Positions 30,091-41,513 of a DNA stretch of 64,000 nt are shown here, one piece after another. Within the stretch, counting starts at the first letter, position 1; every line of letters begins with the position of its first letter. This DNA comes from Actinomyces sp. zg-332. GTDB lineage: Bacteria; Actinomycetota; Actinomycetes; Actinomycetales; Actinomycetaceae. The notes under the pieces were generated by a model. The model was not told the origin of the DNA. It did no database searches and saw nothing but the letters and a program-made list of their open reading frames with translations. The translations under genes were made by a program, and so were the position numbers. The stretch covers positions 992,001-1,056,000 of the forward strand of contig NZ_CP064951.1 in NCBI RefSeq assembly GCF_011751945.2, in the 5' to 3' direction.

Positions 30091-31749
30091 TTACAGAACT
30101 TTAACCTTATGATCAGGCCAAGAAGCAATTTTTTCCATATACTTAGTTTTATTCTTGTCATATAGCTTAGAACTTACTATGTATCCGATATATGCAATAA
30201 CAATCGCATACACTAAACCAACTGCTAGTGCTATGACGTTTACGGAAGTAATTTCAAATGAAAAGCTATCAAAATATCCATATACTAATGCTGGTGGAGC
30301 CAAAAGCACTACTGTAGAAACCATAACAGCAAACTGAGTTAGCATTACCAATCCCATGTTTCCAGTACCTTTTTGTTCAAAAATTGAGGAGTTTGGTACC
30401 TGTATAGGATATAAAATTAGAGTTCCTAAACAAGAATTTACACTTATTGCTACCAAAAATACTATTAGAACAACTACCAAGTTATTCACTACCGCTTGTA
30501 TATTTGGTTCAAAATACAAATACACACAGCTTTGAATGAAAGTAATAACTAGAGTCAAGAAAAAGTAAGGAATTGGACGTACAAAGCGATCAGTTTTACC
30601 TTTTATACCAGTCATAACTTGAGTAGCAAAAGCCGTAGAATCCAAGCTAATATCTGCATGATAAGAGTAAGAAACTAGAAATACAGCAATCCAGCTTACA
30701 GTTAACACGCTTGAGGCGCTTATAAACTCTTTATATACACCCAAGATTGAAAGAATTGGGAATAGAAACATAAATATAAATGAACCGTTGTATCGCGGGT
30801 CTTTCTTCCAATAAATAGTAACTCTAGATAGCATTGCAGCTTTTTCGTCACTAAAACCAAATTTTTTAGCCACAGAGTAATACTTGGTAATCCTATTTAT
30901 ATCAACACTAACTTCTTTCTTAGATTTTTCTTTTCGTTTAGCTTTAGCTGGAGAAACAACCTTTTCATCCAAAGTATTCATAAACATCTTGCAATAGATA
31001 AAATCTAGTAAGATTAGGCTAACTAAAGCAATTGCTAATTGAATGAGAAAACTAGTATAGTCTCCCTCAAATAAGGCAAAAGGAAAAGCTAGAGAGCTGA
31101 CAACTGGAACCCATTGAATTACTTGAAGAAGAGTGATTAGGAAAGCAATACTTGTACCTTTGAATCCTCCAAATACAAAGTAAAAGTATGGTATAGCCAA
31201 GAATGCGAAAACAAGAATCTGCTTTTTGTTCTTTTTATCGCTATCGGTTTCAGATGACCCCATCAAAATCATGAATATTTTACTGCAGTATTGGAAAGCA
31301 ATTACGAATAAAATACTACCTATCAAGTAGCTTAGAGCTAGTATTGGAAAGTCTAGTCCCACTATTACAATAGCAAGCATTGATAAAGATACAAATATAC
31401 CTCGAATACCAACAAATTCAGCAATCATAATCTGTCTGGCAAATTTATGAGAAGGCGTTACAAGTAACCTAAATGCGCTAGGGGTTAGTCCAGACCCTCC
31501 AGTTGTAGAAAAACTGCCCACAAGCACCAAAATCAGAGCTAGAACCGTTGGAGCTAATATTGCCACAAGCCTATATACAGGAAGTTCAGCTTCGCTGAGG
31601 TTTGGCGCCAAAAATGCCATAGCATATATACCTATAAGTCCCATAATTACATATAGATAAAGGACTATAGTTCCCACTAATATAGCAGTACTTTTACGAG
31701 CATAGTTCTTGAATTGAGTATTTTTTAACTTTATTAGTGTTGTAACCAA
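30091..31749 (-). CDS. ABC transporter permease
   Basis: A 552-residue membrane protein with roughly 12 hydrophobic segments, the permease of the two-gene ABC exporter with the ATPase gene upstream. Its start (GTG or ATG-equivalent at 31749) overlaps the end of the ATPase gene by 16 bp, indicating translational coupling. A cytoplasmic basic loop near residues 265-285 (SPAKAKRKEKSKKEVSVD) splits the protein in two halves. The substrate is not indicated. The size fits ABC-2-type exporters of drugs or lipids in actinobacteria; I do not recognise a closer family. Confidence 0.85.
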   Translation of the reverse strand: MVTTLIKLKNTQFKNYARKSTAILVGTIVLYLYVIMGLIGIYAMAFLAPNLSEAELPVYRLVAILAPTVLALILVLVGSFSTTGGSGLTPSAFRLLVTPSHKFARQIMIAEFVGIRGIFVSLSMLAIVIVGLDFPILALSYLIGSILFVIAFQYCSKIFMILMGSSETDSDKKNKKQILVFAFLAIPYFYFVFGGFKGTSIAFLITLLQVIQWVPVVSSLAFPFALFEGDYTSFLIQLAIALVSLILLDFIYCKMFMNTLDEKVVSPAKAKRKEKSKKEVSVDINRITKYYSVAKKFGFSDEKAAMLSRVTIYWKKDPRYNGSFIFMFLFPILSILGVYKEFISASSVLTVSWIAVFLVSYSYHADISLDSTAFATQVMTGIKGKTDRFVRPIPYFFLTLVITFIQSCVYLYFEPNIQAVVNNLVVVLIVFLVAISVNSCLGTLILYPIQVPNSSIFEQKGTGNMGLVMLTQFAVMVSTVVLLAPPALVYGYFDSFSFEITSVNVIALAVGLVYAIVIAYIGYIVSSKLYDKNKTKYMEKIASWPDHKVKVL

Positions 31750-32612
31750 TTTAGTTCCTCTACTTCAATGCTAGAACCAACAGAATCAATGAAACGCTGT
31801 TCAAGGCTAATACCATCAGAGACTTCTTCAACTGAACCAGCTGTAATTACTTTACCTTTATTCATAATTGCAACGTGAGTACACAGTTGTTCAACAGTTG
31901 CCATTACGTGGCTTGAGAAAATAATAGTTCCTCCATTGTCAATATACTGTTTTAGAAGTAACTGAATTTTCTTAGCTGATACTGGGTCCACTGCTTCGAA
32001 AGGCTCATCCAAAATTAGTAAGCTAGGGGCATGAATCATCGCACAGGCTAAAGTAATTTTCTTGGTCATACCAGCAGAATAATCACTAACTAGCTTTTTA
32101 TTTTCTTTGTCTAGGTCTAGAATTTTCAAAAGTTCATTTGCACGCTCAACAATTTCATCTTTAGGTAATCCACGAAGCAAACCGTTATAAGTAAGCAATT
32201 CTAAACCAGTTAAACGGTCAAAAAGACGCATACCATCTGGCATTACACCAATTAAGTTACGAATTTCATCTTCATCAGTTGATAAATCTTTACCTTGAAT
32301 ATAAATTTCACCACTATTTGGTTTCAAAAGCCTTGCAATCATAGCAATTGTGGTAGTTTTACCAGCACCGTTGGGTCCAACAAGCCCATAAAAGCTTCCC
32401 TTAGGCACAACTAGGGAGACATTGTTTACAGCGTATGTACCTGAGAAATTTTTACTCAAGTTCTTTATGCATAAAGCACTGTTAGCAATAGTTTCTTCAG
32501 TAATGTTAAATTCAAAACTCTTTACATCACTTGATTGTAGACTACTGCGGCGTTGTTCGATTTCATTTTCAGAAATACTATCATTATTTGTTTTTTTCCA
32601 TACATCACTCAT
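31734..32612 (-). CDS. ABC transporter ATP-binding protein
   Basis: A 292-residue ATPase. Motifs: Walker A GLVGPNGAGKTTT (about residue 75), Q-loop region near GVMPDGMRLFDRL, signature SDYSAGMTKKI (about 180; SAGM instead of SGGQ, usual in exporters of this type), Walker B SLLILDEPFEAVDP (about 200) and the H-loop FSSHVMATVEQL. The start is placed at the ATG at 32612 (MSDVWKKTNN), because TATAGT with an extended TGG ends 6 nt upstream and no Shine-Dalgarno is present. A longer in-frame start, TTG at 32651, would put the 11-bp G tract inside the coding region and is less likely. Confidence 0.9.
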   Translation of the reverse strand: MSDVWKKTNNDSISENEIEQRRSSLQSSDVKSFEFNITEETIANSALCIKNLSKNFSGTYAVNNVSLVVPKGSFYGLVGPNGAGKTTTIAMIARLLKPNSGEIYIQGKDLSTDEDEIRNLIGVMPDGMRLFDRLTGLELLTYNGLLRGLPKDEIVERANELLKILDLDKENKKLVSDYSAGMTKKITLACAMIHAPSLLILDEPFEAVDPVSAKKIQLLLKQYIDNGGTIIFSSHVMATVEQLCTHVAIMNKGKVITAGSVEEVSDGISLEQRFIDSVGSSIEVEELNWLQH

Positions 32613-32652
32613 ATAAACACTATACCATAACAACGCCCCCCCCCCCGCCAAG
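32613..32652 (-). promoter_or_regulatory. ABC exporter promoter with an 11-bp G tract
   Basis: Read leftwards: TTGGCG (32651-32646), then a run of G (11 in all, 32646-32636), then TGG-TATAGT (-10 at 32624-32619), then 6 nt to the ATG at 32612. With this length the spacer between TTGGCG and TATAGT is 21 bp; a loss of 3-5 G would bring it to the usual 16-18 bp. Slippage could therefore alter transcription. Confidence 0.6.
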
Positions 32653-33163: not shown

Positions 33164-33442
33164 TTAGCTATTTGCAACAGCTTTCTTCAAAGTTAGACCA
33201 GCTGAAATTTTTACACCATAGCCTGCAGCAATCTGCATCTGTTCGCCTGTACGTGGGTTACGACCAACACGTGCAGCACGTTCAACGCGTTCTGCTGTCA
33301 AAATACCTGTCAAACGGATTGTTTCGCCTTTGCACAAAGCATCTGTCAAAACATCTGCAAAACCTGTCAAAGCGGCATCTGCCTGTGATTTTGTTAGGCC
33401 TGCACGTTCAGCAATTGCTGCAACTAGTTCTGAGCGGTTCAT
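33164..33442 (-). CDS. hup: HU-family DNA-binding protein
   Basis: A 92-residue histone-like protein that bends and compacts DNA. The fold pattern is NRSELVAAIAERAGLTKSQADAAL, then IRLTGILTAERVERAARVGRNPRTGEQM, where the DNA-intercalating R-N-P-R-T-G arm is intact. The usual G-F-G-x-F before that arm is replaced by G-I-L-T-A. There is no basic Lys/Ala-rich C-terminal tail of the mycobacterial HupB type. GAGAGGGAAAAA precedes the ATG. It stands alone with its own terminator. Confidence 0.94.
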   Translation of the reverse strand: MNRSELVAAIAERAGLTKSQADAALTGFADVLTDALCKGETIRLTGILTAERVERAARVGRNPRTGEQMQIAAGYGVKISAGLTLKKAVANS

Positions 33443-33586: not shown

Positions 33587-34444
33587 CTAATTAGTAACAA
33601 AAACTTTTCTAATTAGCCCATGCTTTGGTGCAAAAACCCAAGTCAATAAGAAGCAAAGTGTAGCTACTAGAACGATAGTAGCTCCTGTTGGAACTCCTAG
33701 CGACCAGGATAAATAAACACCTATGAAAGCTGAAACTATACCTATCATTGGAGATAAAATCATCATTACTGACATTTTATCCGTCAACAACCTAGCAGTA
33801 GCTGCTGGTGTTACTAGTAGCGCTAATACTAATACGTTTCCAATAGTTTGAATTGATATAACAACAGCGAAAGTAACCATTACATATAAGACAACATCTA
33901 GTACAAAAACTCTAATTCCTAGTATTTTAGCTGTTTCTCTGTCTAGGTTAACAGCTGTAAACTCTTTATGTAGTAAGAAGCAAACAAATAAAATTATTAG
34001 TCCAACTACGCTAGAGATATAAAGGTCTGAGTTAGATATACCAACAATTGAGCCGAATAAGAATTGCTGCAAGGAACCTGAGTACCCTGGGACTAAGGAA
34101 ATGACTAATATACCTAAAGCAAAAGCTCCAGCAAAGAAAACTCCAATTACAGAGTCTTCTTTCAGACGACGATTCTGAGTGAAAGTAGCTACAAGCACGG
34201 CTGTTACCACACCAGCAATTGCTCCACCTAACACTAAAGAACCCTGTAATAAGAAGGCAAAAGCTATACCAGGGAAAACGCTGTGTGCAACAGCATCACC
34301 GATAAAAGACATTCCTCGTAGAACAACATGGTTTCCGACAACACCACACACAACTGAAGCAATAACTGCAGCTAAGAGAGCTTTTGGTAGAAATGAAAGT
34401 ATAGGGTTACATAGGTCTTGTAAAAAGTCTATAAAAGAAATCAT
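33587..34444 (-). CDS. anchored repeat-type metal ABC transporter, permease subunit
   Basis: A 285-residue ZnuB/TroC-type membrane protein with eight or nine helices. Conserved segments include VVLRGMSFIGDAVAHSVFPGIA (about residues 43-64) and GNVLVLALLVTPAATARLLTD (about 205-225), typical of zinc/manganese permeases. It is the last gene of a five-gene cluster; its start shares one base with the stop of the ATPase gene. It matches the TIGR03770 type, found in actinobacteria with the surface proteins of the same cluster. Metal identity (Zn or Mn) is inferred from the family and the operator. Confidence 0.92.
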   Translation of the reverse strand: MISFIDFLQDLCNPILSFLPKALLAAVIASVVCGVVGNHVVLRGMSFIGDAVAHSVFPGIAFAFLLQGSLVLGGAIAGVVTAVLVATFTQNRRLKEDSVIGVFFAGAFALGILVISLVPGYSGSLQQFLFGSIVGISNSDLYISSVVGLIILFVCFLLHKEFTAVNLDRETAKILGIRVFVLDVVLYVMVTFAVVISIQTIGNVLVLALLVTPAATARLLTDKMSVMMILSPMIGIVSAFIGVYLSWSLGVPTGATIVLVATLCFLLTWVFAPKHGLIRKVFVTN

Positions 34445-35214
34445 TAGTGCACTCCCAAACTCTTTAGCATAGGTGATGAAGCATCAACATTAAACGTTTT
34501 CTCCCACAAAGCTGAATCCATAATATTTGTATCGTTTGAGTCAGCAAGAATGGTGGAGTTTAGTAAACACACACGTGAACTTGTATTTAAAGCTCCGTTT
34601 AAGTCGTGAGTTGTCATGATGACAGCTTTACCTTCTTTAGCTAAATCTGAGAACAAGTTTATAAGCAAATCTTGTGTAGGCATATCTAAACCGTTGAAAG
34701 GTTCATCTAGAATCAGTATTTCAGGGTCAACTGATAAAGCCCTGGCAACTAGTACTCGTTGGCGTTGTCCCCCTGATAACTCTCCCACAGGTCGTTTAGC
34801 TAAATCTTGCATACCTAACCTTTTAAGAGCTAGCAAAGATTGCTTGTAGTCTTCAATGCCTGGTCTTCTAAAATAGCCTAAAAGCCCAAATCTTCCTGAT
34901 ACAACTACGTCTTCAACGCTTATAGGATAATCCCACGCAAATTCATGTATCTGCGGAACATATCCGATTGCTACACTTTTTCTCTTAACATCTTTAGGTT
35001 TAATAATCTGACCGCTTTTAGGTTTTATAGCTCCTAAAATTGCTCGCAGAAATGTTGTTTTACCAGCACCATTAGGCCCGATTAGCGCTAGAAATTCTCC
35101 AGACCTTACTTGAAAGTTTACGTTCTCAAGAATTTTTCTACCTGATAGCTCAACATATAAGTTTTTCACTTCAAGTAAAGCTTTACTTTCCGCTTTTTCT
35201 ATTTCTTCTGACAT
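34444..35214 (-). CDS. anchored repeat-type metal ABC transporter, ATP-binding subunit
   Basis: A 256-residue ZnuC-type ATPase. Walker A LIGPNGAGKTTFL (about residue 42), signature VGELSGGQRQRVLVA (about 143), Walker B ILILDEPFNGLDMP (about 168) and the H-loop IMTTHDLNGAL (about 206) are intact. It belongs to the TIGR03771-like subunits. It overlaps the permease gene by one base, and the surface-protein gene ends 87 bp upstream. Confidence 0.93.
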   Translation of the reverse strand: MSEEIEKAESKALLEVKNLYVELSGRKILENVNFQVRSGEFLALIGPNGAGKTTFLRAILGAIKPKSGQIIKPKDVKRKSVAIGYVPQIHEFAWDYPISVEDVVVSGRFGLLGYFRRPGIEDYKQSLLALKRLGMQDLAKRPVGELSGGQRQRVLVARALSVDPEILILDEPFNGLDMPTQDLLINLFSDLAKEGKAVIMTTHDLNGALNTSSRVCLLNSTILADSNDTNIMDSALWEKTFNVDASSPMLKSLGVH

Positions 35215-35301
35215 AAGTATTCATTTCTATTTTTCAGCAATTTTGTTGTGTAAATAGCTAGTATTATTCCTTTAAAATGACATAGAGCATAGTAAATATA
35301 A

Positions 35302-36261
35302 CTACATATTTTCTATTTCTTCATAAGCAGCTTTTTTATGCTTTTTATTTCTTATAACAACAAAAGTAACTAACATTAATCCGAAAACAATTATACCAAT
35401 ACCACCATAGATAATAGGCATAAGAGTATCTATTTTTTCATCTTCAGTAGCATTTCTAACAACTTTTTCTTGTACTTGCTTTGAAAGATTATTCTTATTT
35501 GGATGAGCTTTCATTTTTAAAGCTTGATCAGCGTTTGTTTCACTACCAACAGCAAAACGCAAAGTTTCAACTACTTTTTGTACAGATCCGTCTTTCATCT
35601 GTGCTGATAACTCTAAGTTCACAAGATACACCCCAGGCTTAGTAAATACCCAGTTAGCATGGGTGTGAGTATTTAGATCCATCCAAATATCTTGTCCTTT
35701 TGAGTTAGCTGAATCCCACAAGACAGTTGGAGGTCCAAATGTTCCTGATTCTAAGAACATTGTCATTTGACCAGGGCCTTGCACATTCAATAAACGCAAA
35801 GTTGCACCTTTTGAAAAGTTATCTACGATTTCAGGACTTTGTGTGTTCCAGCCAGCCCACAATACGCCTTCTTTTTGAATCTGTGGAGATACATACACAT
35901 ATCCACCTGCAGCACCTTTGATAAAGGCAAATTCTTCTTTTTCAGGTAGTTTCTTCTTAGACTTATCATTTAGTCGCAGAACTGTTTTATCTAAATATCT
36001 CCACACTGATGGGGAGGAAGAATCATCACGCAGAAATAGTCCTAGTTTGTTATCAATAATTCTTGGGCCAATATCAATATGCCCATTTTCTATTTCTTTC
36101 ACATCTTTTACTAGAGCTTCATCATGTTCTACAGTTTGCTCTAAATTAGAATCTGTTGGTCGAACATCTTCTGCATTAGCTACTTGTAAATTTAAAAGCC
36201 CTACTCCTAAAAGAGATAGAAGAATTACTTTTGCTAGTGCCTTTTTCATCTTTTTCCCCAT
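35302..36261 (-). CDS. surface protein with one choice-of-anchor M domain
   Basis: A 319-residue secreted protein. The N-terminal signal peptide (KKALAKVILLSLLGVGLLN, cut near NAEDV) and the C-terminal transmembrane helix (about 282-304) followed by a basic tail (RNKKHKK) anchor it in the membrane. Between them lies one choice-of-anchor M / 'actinobacterial surface-anchored' domain (TIGR03769), whose core motif is THTHANWVFTKPGVY (about residue 205). It probably faces the cell wall and may bind metal or help the transporter, but no experiment on this family is known to me. Starts at 36261 or 36249 (which has GGGGAAAAAG) are possible. Confidence 0.88.
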   Translation of the reverse strand: MGKKMKKALAKVILLSLLGVGLLNLQVANAEDVRPTDSNLEQTVEHDEALVKDVKEIENGHIDIGPRIIDNKLGLFLRDDSSSPSVWRYLDKTVLRLNDKSKKKLPEKEEFAFIKGAAGGYVYVSPQIQKEGVLWAGWNTQSPEIVDNFSKGATLRLLNVQGPGQMTMFLESGTFGPPTVLWDSANSKGQDIWMDLNTHTHANWVFTKPGVYLVNLELSAQMKDGSVQKVVETLRFAVGSETNADQALKMKAHPNKNNLSKQVQEKVVRNATEDEKIDTLMPIIYGGIGIIVFGLMLVTFVVIRNKKHKKAAYEEIENM

Positions 36262-36270
36262 CTTTTATAC

Positions 36271-36286
36271 AATAATGATTACTATT
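36271..36286 (-). promoter_or_regulatory. possible internal Fur/Zur-like half site
   Basis: AATAATGATTACTATT lies across the 3' end of the binding-protein gene and the 20-bp gap to the next gene. It resembles a Fur-family half site, TAATCATTATT on the minus strand, but is not a good palindrome. It may be an internal operator or chance in AT-rich DNA. Confidence 0.25.
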
Positions 36287-37997
36287 TTAAACACTTTTTC
36301 ATAGATTTGATATTAGCATCCATCATTTGAATATAATTAGTTATATTATCCGTAAAAGTATCTGACCATATCGAACATACTTTAACTCCTTGTTCATCAG
36401 CAATTTGCTTCAAAACAGAAGATTTAGCGATAATATTTGGCTCTAAAAATACAGCTTTAACTTTCAAATTATGAATAGTTTCTGTAAGTTTTTTACGTTC
36501 AGCAACTGAAGGCTGAGTTGATGGATTAGGCGTTACAAAACCAGCCACTTTAACGCCGTAAGCTTTAGCAAAATATCCGAAAGAATCATGAGTTGTGACA
36601 AGTTGTCGATTTTCAATAGGTATTTGCTTGACTTCTTCTAGCAAACGGTGATGTAACTTATCTAATTTTTCCTTATATTCTGTGGCATTCTTATCATAAT
36701 TATTTTTATTTTTAGGATCTATCTCTGAAAGCTTTTCAGCAATCACATCTACATAGTATTTAACATTTTCAGCATTCAACCACAAATGTGGATCCAATTC
36801 ACCGTGAACATGCTTTCCTAGAACTGCCTGAGGTAACAAATATATACTTTCACCAGCTTTACCTAAGAATTTGTATTCAATCTCACTAGGAACTTGTGAA
36901 ATTGCTTTATTAGGAACCTCAATAATTACATCTTTAGCATCATAGTCTTGATGTAAATGTGCGTGTTCGCTGTCTTGTCCATGTACATGAGAATCTTCAT
37001 CATCGTGTCCGTGTTCATCATGATTATGTTCATCACCATTGGTGTTTACATCATGGTCGTGTTCATGCTCATGTTCATGGTTACTTTCATTGTGATTCGT
37101 CTGCGAGTCTTTCCCCTGTTCTTCTTCAACGTGAGAATGAGCCTGATCACCTTCTGCAACTGCTGCACTAAACTTTAACTTTTTATCTTTCAAATCTACA
37201 GTTATATCAGCATGATTTTTATCAAATACTTTTTTGCCTGGGAATTTCTTATGAGCATCTACTCCAACTGCAAAAGTAAAAGTAGATTCTTTAACATCCG
37301 TTACTTTATTAGTTTTGTTATCTTTATGCTTTGCAACAAAAGTAGCCTTATAAATACCTGGTTTAGTAAAAGCCCATGACATATGTGTGTGTGCATCTAT
37401 CGGCAATACAGCCTTAGTGCGACTATCTTTATTCGTTGAATCAAAGTAAATATTTGGTTCACCAAATGACTCTGTCAAATATCCAAACATTTTGCCAGGA
37501 CCTACAAGTTTTTTGAGACTAATCTCTACTTGTTGACTTCTAGTATCAGTATCTTTTTTACCTTCACCTTCAACTCTAAGCCCTAACCAAATTGTATCTA
37601 AAGCCCTATTTTCAACTAAGTTAATAGTCTTTATTCCTTTAGGTATAGCACTTTCTGCTAATGCAATATTTTGAACTTTTTTAGGCAAATTTGCATCTAG
37701 CATTTTGATAACCGCTTGTTCTTCTAGAGTCAGGTAGTTACTAAAAGCTATATCAGCATTAGCTACATCTCGTGTCTGCCTAAAAGTTGGTTCATATGAG
37801 TGTGGGTCTGCCCCATTAGGTACAAGAGCAGTAACATTTGCTTTATCCCTAGTAACGTTTTTTACGATATCAGCAATAATTGGTGTTGTAGCAACAACAT
37901 TTACTTTATCACTTTGATGTGATGTGGACGCACTTGCGCATCCGGATAGAAAAACACATAGAGCTGCAACACTAACTATAGTATTTTTAATTCTCAC
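36282..37997 (-). CDS. anchored repeat-type metal ABC transporter, substrate-binding lipoprotein
   Basis: A 571-residue lipoprotein (lipobox LSGCAS, Cys20) of the ZnuA class with an inserted domain (TIGR03772-like). The first 130 residues and the last 250 form the metal-binding ZnuA fold: PIIADIVKNVTRDKANVTALVPNGADPHSYEPT with His ligand, LDPHLWLNAENV, and VTTHDSFGYFAKAYGVKV. Between them is a choice-of-anchor M module (about 130-250, core AHTHMSWAFTKPGIY) and a long His/Asp/Glu-rich loop (about 275-350, such as HEHEHEHDHD). Such His-rich loops collect zinc. The insertion of the surface module inside the binding protein is the hallmark of this cluster. Confidence 0.92.
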   Translation of the reverse strand: MRIKNTIVSVAALCVFLSGCASASTSHQSDKVNVVATTPIIADIVKNVTRDKANVTALVPNGADPHSYEPTFRQTRDVANADIAFSNYLTLEEQAVIKMLDANLPKKVQNIALAESAIPKGIKTINLVENRALDTIWLGLRVEGEGKKDTDTRSQQVEISLKKLVGPGKMFGYLTESFGEPNIYFDSTNKDSRTKAVLPIDAHTHMSWAFTKPGIYKATFVAKHKDNKTNKVTDVKESTFTFAVGVDAHKKFPGKKVFDKNHADITVDLKDKKLKFSAAVAEGDQAHSHVEEEQGKDSQTNHNESNHEHEHEHDHDVNTNGDEHNHDEHGHDDEDSHVHGQDSEHAHLHQDYDAKDVIIEVPNKAISQVPSEIEYKFLGKAGESIYLLPQAVLGKHVHGELDPHLWLNAENVKYYVDVIAEKLSEIDPKNKNNYDKNATEYKEKLDKLHHRLLEEVKQIPIENRQLVTTHDSFGYFAKAYGVKVAGFVTPNPSTQPSVAERKKLTETIHNLKVKAVFLEPNIIAKSSVLKQIADEQGVKVCSIWSDTFTDNITNYIQMMDANIKSMKKCLK

Positions 37998-39663
37998 TCT
38001 TCGTCCTAAAACTATAGATTATGATTCCTGATGAAATAAGCAAAGCTAAAATCCCAACACCTGCTAGTGCATAGTAAATAGAATTTGATGACTGCTCACT
38101 AGTATATTCCTTGCCAGAAGCATTGAATTTAACTGCTTTTGCCTTTTTAGAAACTTCTTTTTCTTCTTTTTTATCTTTATCAGTTTTAGATGCTACTTTT
38201 CCATAAGATTGTGGCAAAGATGCAGAACATTCATTACCATTTTCATCTCGTCCAACTAACTCATTCCAAGCAACATTTGTTCTAGCAACTGTAGTCTGTG
38301 TGATAATTACTGAATATTGACCTGGTGCTGAGAAAAACCAGTTAGGGTGTGTATGAGAGTTTGCTGGTACTGTCCAAGATGATCCGCCACCAGCTCCTAG
38401 TAGCACTCTTCCTGATTGTCCGAAACTAGAACCTTCTACTAAGGCTACTCTTCCAGGACCTACATAATTCATCTGGAAGGTAACATTTCCTGTCGTGTTC
38501 TGTAGTAGTCCTGGATGTTGAGTATTTATACCTACCCAAGGAACTGATGCTTTTTGAGTCTGATCAATCATCCAAGCAGTTGCGCCTTTTTCACCAATAC
38601 TTGATAAACCAGCAGGTAAGGAAACTCTTGCAGCATCAGACAATGCAAATGTTCTAGAAGATGGATTTACCCATAAACCCTGATTATCGTCTTTTAGTAC
38701 ACCAGTGTATTCACCGTTTATTACTGCAGATCCTAAGTCAAAGTGTCCACTTGTAATTCCAGCGCTACTTCCAACATTAAACAATACTGTACTCGTGGTC
38801 TTAATTTTATCACCTGGTTTTGCTTGCCTGCGCTCTAGAACTGGTTTACAAGTTTTTCCAACAGGTTTATTCGAGTTTTCTTGTATTTTATTAGCTACAT
38901 TTGGACTAACACAGTAGTAGTTACCATCGTTAGCTAGTTTTTTCTCATAACCTTTCCTACAATCTGCTTTGGGAGCTTCTACAGGTGGTTTTGACTGATT
39001 TTTTGAGTCTACATCTATCCTGTAAGTTGCACTTCCAACATTGTAGTCTTTGCCATCTTTAGTAGATACTACATTTACTTTGAAAGTATATCTTCCTGCT
39101 TTAGTAAAAGTCCAAGTTACGTGTTTGTGTGTTGGAAATGGTTCTACGATTTGAGAACCATTTACTACTTCAATTCCTCCACCTGATAAGACAGGAGAAA
39201 CTGGATTATTTACAGTAGATTGATACATATAAACTTTGCCAGGACCTTGTACACTCTCAAAAGTAAATTTAGTAGACTGATATCCAATTTTAGCTACAGC
39301 TAGCGTATCCCATCCTGGCCATAGGATATCAGGATTATTACCTGATTGTGATAACACATATGCACTCGGTGCGCCTGGAAAATGTGCAGGTATCTGGGTG
39401 TAATAAGCTTTATCTGTAACTTCTAGCACTGTAGTATTAGGATCGCGTAAAACTTTTCTTCCCGTAATATCTTCTGATAAAAATAATTTTGGTTTTCCGT
39501 TAACTGGCTCTAGATGAAATAAATCGACATGATTACCACCTTTTGCTCCAATAATCACATCTTCAGCATAGGTAGGTGTAATACTACCAGCACTGACCAA
39601 CAAGAAAATCAAAAATAGTGTTATAGCTTTTACCCGATTGGATTTTCCAAATTTTGTTACCAC
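37987..39663 (-). CDS. surface protein with two choice-of-anchor M domains
   Basis: A 558-residue secreted, membrane-anchored protein (TIGR03773-like, ABC transporter-associated repeat protein). The signal peptide is residues 1-33 (cut near TYAED) and the C-terminal helix is YALAGVGILALLISSGIIIY with a short basic tail. Two choice-of-anchor M modules have the cores THKHVTWTFTKAGRY (about residue 180) and SHTHPNWFFSAPGQY (about 420), separated by a cysteine-containing linker (CRKGYEKKL, YYCVSPN, CKPVLERRQ). It is the first gene of the metal cluster, begins with a GTG and AAGG site, and overlaps the binding-protein gene by 11 bp. Confidence 0.9.
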   Translation of the reverse strand: MVTKFGKSNRVKAITLFLIFLLVSAGSITPTYAEDVIIGAKGGNHVDLFHLEPVNGKPKLFLSEDITGRKVLRDPNTTVLEVTDKAYYTQIPAHFPGAPSAYVLSQSGNNPDILWPGWDTLAVAKIGYQSTKFTFESVQGPGKVYMYQSTVNNPVSPVLSGGGIEVVNGSQIVEPFPTHKHVTWTFTKAGRYTFKVNVVSTKDGKDYNVGSATYRIDVDSKNQSKPPVEAPKADCRKGYEKKLANDGNYYCVSPNVANKIQENSNKPVGKTCKPVLERRQAKPGDKIKTTSTVLFNVGSSAGITSGHFDLGSAVINGEYTGVLKDDNQGLWVNPSSRTFALSDAARVSLPAGLSSIGEKGATAWMIDQTQKASVPWVGINTQHPGLLQNTTGNVTFQMNYVGPGRVALVEGSSFGQSGRVLLGAGGGSSWTVPANSHTHPNWFFSAPGQYSVIITQTTVARTNVAWNELVGRDENGNECSASLPQSYGKVASKTDKDKKEEKEVSKKAKAVKFNASGKEYTSEQSSNSIYYALAGVGILALLISSGIIIYSFRTKSEN

Positions 39664-39682
39664 TTCAAACCTTACTAATAAC

Positions 39683-39717
39683 GATTATCAATAAGAATAG
39701 TTTACTTATTGATAATC
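39683..39717 (-). promoter_or_regulatory. Fur/Zur-type operator upstream of the metal-transport cluster
   Basis: GATTATCAATAAG (39683-39695) and CTTATTGATAATC (39705-39717) form a perfect 13-bp inverted repeat with a 9-bp spacer, 20 bp upstream of the first gene. The half TGATAATCATTTTC on its right side (39710-39723) resembles Fur-family boxes. With the zinc-type transporter downstream, control by Zur is the most likely reading; no regulator gene is present in the window. Confidence 0.75.
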
Positions 39718-39827
39718 ATTTTCGCAAGAGGTAAAACACTCTATACTAAAACAAAAGTAAGAATCACATAAAGTATTAAAAACGGCTACAATAAACATTA
39801 ATAAACAAACGTAATAAGGAATAAAAA

Positions 39828-41513
39828 ATGACTAAAGCACCTAAAAACACAAAGCTAGACCAAATAGCTGAAGAATACGTTGACAATATAGCAAAGAATA
39901 ACCCTATTGAAGCAACATACTTAGGTATAAAAGGTTATGACCACTTGTGGCCAGATTTTAGTCCTAGCGGTTTAGAAAAAACAAATAAATTACATTTATA
40001 TACACTTGAAAAAGCAAAAAATGTAGAGTTAGAAAATGTAACAGACGAAATAACTCTAAAAGCAATGGAAGAGAGAATTTCCCTATACAACAAACTTTAT
40101 GTCACTGGAGAACAACATAGATCACTAAATAACATTGAGTCACCTCTTCAAGCAATAAGAGACATATTTGACTTGCAGTCTCAAGAAACACAAGAAGACT
40201 TTGAAAAAATCCTTACACGTTTACAAAACATAGACCAACCACTACAAGGATATATTGAAAGCTTACAATACGCTAAAAACAAAGAACACGTTAGCGCTAA
40301 ACGCCAAATAGAAGCTGTATGTAAGCAAATAGACAATCTAGCGTCTTCATCTTCCTCATTAGATTTACTTGAACAAACTTATTCAAAATTGCAAAACTGC
40401 GATTCTTCTTTCCAAAGCACACTTAAAGAAGCTATCCAAAACGCTAAATGTGAATTTAATAAGCTAAAAACTTATATGCAAGAAGAACTTATACCCCTCG
40501 CTCCGCAAGAGGACGCTGTCGGCTTAGAAAGATATAAACTACTATCTCAATATCATGTTGGTGCAGTTGTAGATCTTGATGAAACGTACGAGTGGGGACA
40601 AGAAGAACTAAATAATATAGATAAGCAGCAAAAAGAAATCGCCAAAGAACTCTACGGCGATAACGTCAGCGTAATGCAAGCACTAAACAACTTAAACAAT
40701 GAGCCACGCTATATTTTACACGGCACAAAAGCATTACAAGAATGGATGCAAAAGACTGCTGATGAAGCTATACAAAAGCTAAAAGGAACTCACTTTGATA
40801 TAGATCCGCGTATAGAGACCATTGAATGTTGCATTGCACCAAGCTCATCAGGTGGAATTTACTACACAGGACCATCAGAAGACTTCACCAGACCAGGACG
40901 TATGTGGTGGTCAGTTCCACAGGGAGAAGACAAATTTGTTACATGGCAAGAAAAAACAACTGTCTACCACGAAGGAGTACCTGGGCATCATCTACAAGTT
41001 GGTCAAACTATATGTCTAACAGAACAGCTAAACCGTTGGCGTCGACTAGCCTGCTGGATTAGCGGACACGGCGAAGGATGGGCATTATATTCCGAACAGC
41101 TCATGGATGAACTAGGATACTTAAACGATCCTGGTGAAAGAATGGGAATGTTAGATGCGCAACGACTACGTGCAAGTCGTGTAGTGCTTGATATTGGCGT
41201 ACATTTGAAGAAAAAAGCTCCAAGCCAGTATGGTGATAAACTTTGGGATAGTAATATTGCATGGCAGTTTTTGAAAGATAATGTTGCAATGAACGAAACT
41301 TTCTTACACTTTGAATGGGAACGTTACCTTGGCTGGGCTGGACAAGCGCCTTCTTACAAGATAGGTCAACGCCTATGGCTACAAGCACGTGAGGAATATT
41401 TGCGTACAGCAAGCGGTAAAGGAATGGAGCCAACTATGAAAGCTTTCCATAAAAAAGCACTAAATATTGGTTCTCTAAGCCTAGACATCATGAAAGAAGC
41501 ACTACAGAAATAA
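39828..41513 (+). CDS. DUF885 putative metallopeptidase
   Basis: A 561-residue soluble protein of the DUF885 family, related to gluzincin peptidases. The zinc motif is VYHEGVPGHHLQVG (about residue 379), where HE-x-x-x-H is a known variant of HExxH in this family, and a downstream Glu is in SGHGEGWALYSEQLMDELGYL (about 413-433). The first 330 residues are helical. It has no signal peptide, so it is cytoplasmic. AAGGAATAAAA precedes the ATG. It lies divergent from the metal cluster with 160 bp between. Substrates are unknown; peptide turnover is likely. Confidence 0.9.
   Translation: MTKAPKNTKLDQIAEEYVDNIAKNNPIEATYLGIKGYDHLWPDFSPSGLEKTNKLHLYTLEKAKNVELENVTDEITLKAMEERISLYNKLYVTGEQHRSLNNIESPLQAIRDIFDLQSQETQEDFEKILTRLQNIDQPLQGYIESLQYAKNKEHVSAKRQIEAVCKQIDNLASSSSSLDLLEQTYSKLQNCDSSFQSTLKEAIQNAKCEFNKLKTYMQEELIPLAPQEDAVGLERYKLLSQYHVGAVVDLDETYEWGQEELNNIDKQQKEIAKELYGDNVSVMQALNNLNNEPRYILHGTKALQEWMQKTADEAIQKLKGTHFDIDPRIETIECCIAPSSSGGIYYTGPSEDFTRPGRMWWSVPQGEDKFVTWQEKTTVYHEGVPGHHLQVGQTICLTEQLNRWRRLACWISGHGEGWALYSEQLMDELGYLNDPGERMGMLDAQRLRASRVVLDIGVHLKKKAPSQYGDKLWDSNIAWQFLKDNVAMNETFLHFEWERYLGWAGQAPSYKIGQRLWLQAREEYLRTASGKGMEPTMKAFHKKALNIGSLSLDIMKEALQK

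What the first reader, a model, noticed from the sequence alone, without database searches (positions are those of the whole stretch)
33587..39717. A metal-uptake cluster with four surface modules sharing an H-x-H-x2-W-x-F-[TS] motif
Three proteins (35302-36261, 36282-37997, 37987-39663) contain four copies of a module with the core [TS]-H-[TK]-H-x-x-W-x-F-[TS]. One is inserted in the binding protein itself, next to a His-rich loop. The family is named in databases (TIGR03769-TIGR03773, 'anchored repeat'), but I know of no biochemical role. The paired His residues in every copy could bind metal, so these surface proteins may collect zinc at the wall and hand it to the binding protein. This is the best candidate here for a poorly described system.
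Basis: partly seen in the sequence, partly recalled or inferred. Interest (0 to 1): 0.75.

Follow-up and report, generated by a model that had tools for sequence, protein, structure and literature searches.

The report
Surface-protein-assisted zinc uptake operon
This is a zinc-uptake operon of a small actinobacterium, of a kind already studied in the diphtheria bacterium; what is new here is that the zinc-carrier protein contains a rearranged (circularly permuted) copy of the same surface module, which links surface capture and transport more tightly than was noted before.

Summary
Window 33587-39663 (- strand) is an operon of the "anchored repeat" metal ABC transporter (TIGR03770-03773): surface protein, substrate-binding protein (SBP), ZnuE-like protein, ATPase, permease. 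Four copies of the choice-of-anchor M module carry the HxH-x2-W-x-F motif. In 515 modules from 80 related loci, H/D of HxD are 99% and the H residues of HxH 94% conserved.

The system is not undescribed. Peng, Lyman and Schmitt (2025, PMC12445094) characterised the C. diphtheriae homologues: ZnuE, ZnuF and ZnuG bind zinc; ZnuE and its His residues are needed for growth in low zinc; ZnuF/ZnuG are dispensable and can sequester zinc.

My additions. (1) The SBP copy is a circular permutant of the module: motif order reversed in all 97 SBPs examined, rotated profile better than native in 80/80 tested, predicted strands matching one to one. The His-rich loop sits inside it. (2) A Zur-box-like palindrome precedes both this operon and the only other module-encoding gene in the genome; such sites abound in related loci. 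(3) Best model: zinc capture and hand-off, with ZnuE in line. The hand-off is inferred.

The parts
39676..39690 (-). Zur-box-like palindrome TAATAACGATTATCA (2 mismatches to TGAWAATNATTWTCA) upstream of the operon
   Evidence: weaker of two sites in the divergent promoter region
39710..39724 (-). Zur-box-like palindrome TGATAATCATTTTCG (1 mismatch) upstream of the operon
   Evidence: same kind of palindrome precedes the other module gene of the genome and is enriched in related loci
37987..39663 (-). ZnuF-like surface protein, 558 aa, signal peptide, two canonical modules, C-terminal TM helix; TIGR03773
   Evidence: E 1.1e-79, above cut-off; no LPXTG/LAXTG seen in the C-terminus
39520..39531 (-). 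HxD motif HVDL, module 1 of the ZnuF-like protein
39106..39129 (-). HxHxxWxF motif HKHVTWTF, module 1 of the ZnuF-like protein
38734..38745 (-). HxD motif HFDL, module 2 of the ZnuF-like protein
38332..38355 (-). HxHxxWxF motif HTHPNWFF, module 2 of the ZnuF-like protein
36282..37997 (-). ZnuA-like substrate-binding lipoprotein, 571 aa, with inserted circularly permuted module; TIGR03772
   Evidence: E 6.7e-181, above cut-off; host fold matches cluster A-I SBPs
37263..37595 (-). SBP module, first piece (residues 135-245) = C-terminal part of the canonical module, with HTHMSWAF at 37368-37391
36825..37262 (-). SBP module, second piece (residues 246-391) = N-terminal part of the canonical module, with HADI at 37203-37214; contains the His-rich loop
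36957..37142 (-). His-rich loop (residues 286-347) inside the permuted module; predicted disordered; absent or short in most relatives
   Evidence: (pLDDT<50, 285-345)
36786..36812 (-). Invariant HVHGELDPH segment (H396, H398, H404) joining the permuted module to the SBP metal site
35302..36261 (-). ZnuE-like membrane-anchored protein, 319 aa, one canonical module (HIDI 36070-36081; HTHANWVF 35644-35667), C-terminal TM helix
34444..35214 (-). ABC ATPase (ZnuC-like), TIGR03771
   Evidence: E 1.6e-92, above cut-off
33587..34444 (-). ABC permease (ZnuB-like), TIGR03770
   Evidence: E 6.4e-130, above cut-off

Best explanation
This is the anchored-repeat zinc ABC importer, a Znu system with gene order znuF-A-E-C-B, probably repressed by Zur when zinc is replete. 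Each module is a beta-sandwich whose HxD and HxH motifs, far apart in sequence, come together as a His3/Asp zinc site. Membrane-tethered modules (the ZnuF-like protein, and ZnuE) bind zinc outside the membrane. The SBP carries a circularly permuted copy of the module just before its own metal ligand H404. That copy, with its His-rich loop and the invariant HVH link, acts as a docking or entry site that passes zinc into the H66/H404/H470/D546 cleft, and the permease and ATPase import it. Shown by sequence: family, operon, motif conservation, permutation, promoter palindromes. Shown by others in C. diphtheriae: zinc binding, need for ZnuE and its His residues, surface localisation. Inferred: site geometry in this protein, direction of transfer, role of the permuted module, Zur control in this organism.
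For: Permease, ATPase, SBP and the 558 aa surface protein score above the curated TIGR03770-03773 cut-offs, and the 319 aa protein above that of the module NF038134. Of 63 fully covered relatives, 62 keep SBP, ZnuE-like protein, ATPase and permease, and 58 also have an upstream module protein. HxD/HxH conserved in 515 modules and in 97 SBPs. Permutation: profile rotated at ZnuE residue 130 gives a median of 75.6 bits against 42.5 for native order, best of ten cut points, 80/80 SBPs better, control SBPs below 0 bits; pairwise alignment score 371 against 94, 55/185 identical; predicted strands in one-to-one rotated order. Host fold matches PsaA/YfeA/AztC. Zur-box-like sites; a Fur-family regulator beside glyS and uppS. 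Published genetics and zinc binding in C. diphtheriae.
Against: In C. diphtheriae the znuA deletion has only a modest effect and znuF/znuG deletions none, and ZnuF/ZnuG reduce growth without the transporter, which fits storage or sequestration as well as delivery. His-to-Ala mutants still respond to zinc in thermal shift. I had no coordinates from the models, so site geometry was not measured here. Some SBPs lack H470 (4 of 77 have N). The Zur-box pattern is not enriched genome-wide in this AT-rich genome (7 sites against 8 for the reversed control); the argument is positional. The Fur-family regulator was not assigned to Zur by any curated model above cut-off.
Confidence: 0.72

Rival explanations
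1. The surface modules are mainly a zinc store or buffer on the cell surface, not a delivery chain; only ZnuE assists the transporter.
For: znuF/znuG deletions do not reduce growth in low zinc when the transporter is present, and their presence reduces growth when it is absent; the authors propose storage or sequestration among the options.
Against: The surface gene is operonic with the transporter here, module proteins sit upstream in 58 of 63 relatives, and the SBP itself contains the module motifs in 97 of 97, which points to a functional link. Loss of the C. diphtheriae znuF operon lengthened lag.
Confidence: 0.4
2. The HxD/HxH residues are a structural element (hydrogen-bond or structural zinc) that stabilises the sandwich; transported zinc binds elsewhere.
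For: His-to-Ala mutants of ZnuE and ZnuG are less stable and ZnuE still shifts with zinc. Glycine, Trp, Phe and Pro positions are about equally conserved, as expected of fold residues.
Against: His-to-Ala ZnuE fails to complement and His-to-Ala ZnuG loses its growth effect, though loss of stability could explain both. The other module gene of this genome keeps HxD/HxH but loses the Trp, so the His are kept when a fold residue changes.
Confidence: 0.2
3. The system imports another metal (manganese or iron) rather than zinc.
For: SBP fold matches Mn/Fe binders best (PsaA, MtsA, YfeA) and the NCBIfam runner-up models include Mn transporters.
Against: Third ligand is His (H470, zinc type) in most members; zinc-repressed expression and zinc phenotypes in C. 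diphtheriae; Zur-box-like sites; AztC is the best runner-up model.
Confidence: 0.08
4. The modules are adhesins (MSCRAMM-like sandwiches) that use metal only for folding.
For: Weak Foldseek matches include collagen- and fibrinogen-binding adhesin domains.
Against: No match with E below 0.001 and TM-scores are low; operon, promoter sites and published genetics all point to zinc.
Confidence: 0.05

Closest known systems
Corynebacterium diphtheriae ZnuAECB with ZnuF and ZnuG (DIP0438-0443; Peng et al. 2025, PMC12445094; 2019, PMC6711530)
   Same: Same A-E-C-B gene order, ZnuE with one module, ZnuF with two modules and no sortase signal, HxD/HxH motif, motif reversed in the SBP; zinc/Zur control there, Zur-box-like sites here
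   Different: Here the two-module protein leads a single operon; no ZnuG, DIP0444 or DIP0445 equivalent next to it; SBP has a long His-rich loop; the only sortase found is class E
NCBIfam TIGR03769-TIGR03773 and NF038134 (anchored repeat ABC system, choice-of-anchor M)
   Same: All five proteins are hit by these models
   Different: The 319 aa ZnuE-like protein is named only by its domain here; the canonical module profile matches the SBP copy in two pieces in swapped order
AztABCD of Paracoccus denitrificans and ZnuABC/AdcABC
   Same: Cluster A-I zinc SBP, permease and ATPase; a helper protein delivering zinc (AztD) is a functional parallel
   Different: No choice-of-anchor M module in those systems; AztD is an unrelated chaperone (from my own knowledge)
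Streptococcal polyhistidine triad (Pht) proteins with AdcAII
   Same: Surface zinc-binding proteins working with a zinc SBP; comparison made by Peng et al.
   Different: Different sequence motif (HxxHxH)
CmrA/CmrA2 surface proteins of C. diphtheriae
   Same: The 979 aa ORF elsewhere in this genome has two modules and a Zur-box-like site
   Different: No sortase signal seen here, whereas CmrA and CmrA2 have one

Membership tests
Anchored repeat-type ABC transporter (TIGR03770/03771/03772) | Permease, ATPase and SBP above the curated cut-offs | tested here: met
   432.7 vs 296.8, 309.3 vs 268.8 and 602.1 vs 350.45 bits
TIGR03773 transporter-associated surface protein | Whole protein above cut-off, encoded next to the transporter | tested here: met
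   558 aa protein 268.8 vs 190.3 bits; operon position
Choice-of-anchor M / HxD-HxH module | HxD followed by HxHxxWxF at about 130-150 residues, canonical order (ZnuE-like and ZnuF-like proteins) | tested here: met
   ZnuE-like: 61 and 199; ZnuF-like: 45/179 and 307/437
Choice-of-anchor M / HxD-HxH module | Same canonical order in the SBP copy | tested here: not met
   Order is reversed (203 then 262); it is a circular permutant, related but not canonical
Znu system of C. diphtheriae | A-E-C-B gene order with a single-module ZnuE | tested here: met
   Window order, motifs, compared with the paper
Znu system of C. diphtheriae | Zinc/Zur-regulated expression | tested here: inconclusive
   Zur-box-like palindromes in the promoter and in relatives, and a Fur-family regulator present; expression not measurable here
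Znu system of C. diphtheriae | Zinc binding and requirement for growth in low zinc | not testable with these tools
   Known for the homologues only
Cluster A-I zinc SBP (ZnuA/AztC) | Fold and His3/Asp ligands | tested here: met
   TM-score normalised by target mostly 0.81-0.87; H66, H404, H470, D546 in alignments
Sortase-anchored surface protein | LPXTG/LAXTG signal before the TM helix | tested here: not met
   C-terminus GKEYTSEQSSNSIYYALAGVGILALLISSGIIIYSFRTKSEN has none by inspection

The most novel reading that the evidence does not exclude
The permuted module in the SBP is a dedicated zinc docking and transfer site. It evolved once, from the junction of two tandem surface modules, pairs with the like module of ZnuE, and makes the surface-to-SBP transfer a homotypic relay found across Actinomycetota.
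Probability: 0.25. Interest if true: 0.6.

Novelty: new member of a known kind. Interest (0 to 1): 0.36.

Why it matters
How zinc crosses the Gram-positive surface is poorly understood. The permutation shows that the zinc carrier protein and the surface proteins share a module, and that in the carrier it sits beside the metal ligands. That gives a concrete, testable route for hand-off between ZnuE, the surface proteins and the SBP. The 413 relatives found in one scan of bacterial and archaeal genomes show that the system is widespread; the 80 best, which are all I saw named, are actinobacteria.

Tried and rejected
Undescribed system: rejected, published in 2019 and 2025. Chance motif: rejected. 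Sortase anchoring of these proteins: no signal found; only one sortase hit, class E. Solved relative of the module: none by sequence up to E=1, none by fold below E=0.001. Zur-like sites at C1:1474589 and C1:1063210: inside coding sequence, taken as chance. I could not measure atom distances because models are returned without coordinates. A literature search for a described permutation found none, in open-access papers only.
Full report
Observation. The ORFs at 35302-36261, 36282-37997 and 37987-39663 (- strand) exist and lie in one tight run with the ATPase (34444-35214) and permease (33587-34444); neighbouring genes overlap or are at most 87 bases apart. NCBIfam models for the anchored-repeat ABC system match: permease TIGR03770, ATPase TIGR03771, SBP TIGR03772 and surface protein TIGR03773 all above their curated cut-offs, and the choice-of-anchor M domain NF038134 in all three module proteins. 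Each module also has HxD[LI], 130-138 residues before HxH in the canonical copies.

Is it more than chance? In 515 modules found by profile in 80 related loci, the H and D of HxD are 99% conserved, both His of HxH 94%, and the Trp 98%. The profile was built from ZnuE relatives chosen by these motifs, but the modules were found by whole-profile score. In the 97 SBPs aligned (77 in A2 and 20 in A1, with the window protein in both), H203, H205, W208, F210, H262 and D264 are invariant. The A2 loci were recruited through the patterns HTH[ML]SW and HVHG, so invariance of those residues is inflated; H262 and D264 were not used for recruitment.

What is known. The system was reported as zinc- and Zur-regulated in C. 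diphtheriae in 2019 (PMC6711530), and its surface proteins were studied in 2025 (PMC12445094). There ZnuE, ZnuF and ZnuG showed zinc-dependent thermal shifts. ZnuE was critical for growth in low zinc, and its His-to-Ala form did not complement. znuF and znuG single deletions had no effect with the transporter present, and the two genes lowered growth when it was absent. The His-to-Ala ZnuE still shifted with zinc, so the authors call direct binding by the motif unproven. They noted that the motif in ZnuA is in reverse order, with a short interval. I found no mention of permutation in that paper or in the open-access papers searched.

New result 1: circular permutation. The NF038134 match in the SBP is split, profile 72-184 first and 24-74 second. 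I built a profile from 70 ZnuE relatives, leaving out the window's own protein, and rotated it. Native order gave a median best-domain score of 42.5 bits over 80 SBPs; rotation at ZnuE residue 130 gave 75.6, the highest of ten cut points, and the match was nearly always in one domain rather than two. In the window's own SBP the match stays in two pieces because of the His-rich loop, and several cut points score alike there; the peak at 130 comes from the relatives. The rotated profile scored higher in 80 of 80 SBPs, while ten control SBPs without the module scored below zero or not at all with both. A global alignment of the window's ZnuE module to the SBP module scored 371 rotated against 94 native, with 55 of 185 aligned residues identical; this score includes a bonus for agreement of predicted secondary structure, and the disordered loop was left out. 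AlphaFold2 models (mean pLDDT 87.4 and 81.6) give the strands in the same order after rotation: ZnuE 134-139, 149-161, 166-170, 179-183, 190-195, 199-201, 203-206, 210-222, 227-238 then 55-57, 60-69, 72-79, 86-89, 93-97, 102-104, 121-125 correspond to SBP 137-143, 156-165, 170-175, 181-186, 195-199, 202-205, 207-210, 214-226, 231-244 then 256-258, 262-268, 273-279, 349-352, 357-361, 366-368, 384-388. The insertion lies between the SBP ligands H66 and H404, directly before the invariant HVHGxxDPH segment. The rest of the protein is a cluster A-I SBP (TM-score normalised by target mostly 0.81-0.87 for PsaA, YfeA, AztC and others). The window SBP also has a 62-residue His-rich loop inside the module, predicted disordered (pLDDT below 50 at 285-345); over the aligned stretch it is 69 residues with 16 His, against a median of 8 residues and 1 His in the relatives of alignment A2. 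How the permutation arose is inference: taking a piece across the junction of two tandem modules, which the surface proteins contain, would produce exactly this order.

New result 2: regulation. Two Zur-box-like palindromes lie at 39676-39690 and 39710-39724, just upstream of the operon. With one mismatch allowed, the genome has seven such sites. One is this promoter; another (C1:1406435-1406449) lies 26 bases upstream of a probable ATG of the only other module gene in the genome, a 979 aa ORF with two modules; the longest reading of that ORF, from a TTG, would run over the site. The pattern as such is not enriched in this AT-rich genome (eight control sites), so the argument rests on position; a rough hand estimate of two of seven sites falling in two 200-base promoters is about one in a million, made after the fact. 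In 1.52 Mb of related, mostly GC-rich loci, the palindrome TGAWAATSATTWTCA with up to two mismatches occurs 69 times against 0.25 on average for four scrambled palindromes. A Fur-family protein next to glyS and uppS is the likely Zur, from recalled synteny with mycobacterial zur; no curated Zur model passes its cut-off.

Conserved partnership. Among 63 loci with enough flank, 62 have a ZnuE-like protein, ATPase and permease after the SBP, and 58 also have a module protein upstream. ZnuE is therefore a fixed component.

Mechanism. Best model: canonical modules at the surface (ZnuF-like) and at the membrane (ZnuE) bind zinc through HxD/HxH; the SBP's permuted module, the His-rich loop and the HVH link bring zinc to H66/H404/H470/D546; permease and ATPase import it. 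The order of transfer and the role of the permuted module are inference. The storage rival is strong for the ZnuF-like protein, given the C. diphtheriae genetics.

Verdict. A real and correctly located zinc-type uptake system, rightly read as metal uptake, but of a kind already described. The permutation, seen in every SBP examined, is the part worth passing on.

Noticed in passing
L128:3540-6479 (G000:C1:1403539-1406478): 979 aa surface-type ORF with two choice-of-anchor M modules (HIDA/HTHSYTTF and HLDL/HVHKATYF) that keep the His motifs but lose the Trp; has a Zur-box-like site and a C-terminal TM helix without a sortase signal.
   Followed up: partly
L133:4235-7921 (G000:C1:478234-481920): A second metal ABC transporter with two permeases, ATPase and a module-free SBP, closest to AztC/MntC models; also has DPH and SHDAF-type ligand motifs.
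   Followed up: partly
window 33164-33442 (-): HU-like nucleoid protein gene in the gap downstream of the operon.
   Followed up: partly
window 39828-41513 (+): DUF885 protein (likely metallopeptidase, with a VYHEGVPGHH stretch) divergently transcribed from the zinc operon and sharing its promoter region with the Zur-box-like sites.
   Followed up: no
window 30091-32651 (-): ABC exporter pair; the 552 aa membrane protein has no Pfam or NCBIfam match.
   Followed up: no
window 36282-37997, SBP residues 541 and 569: Two Cys invariant in all SBPs aligned, a probable disulfide in the C-terminal lobe.
   Followed up: no
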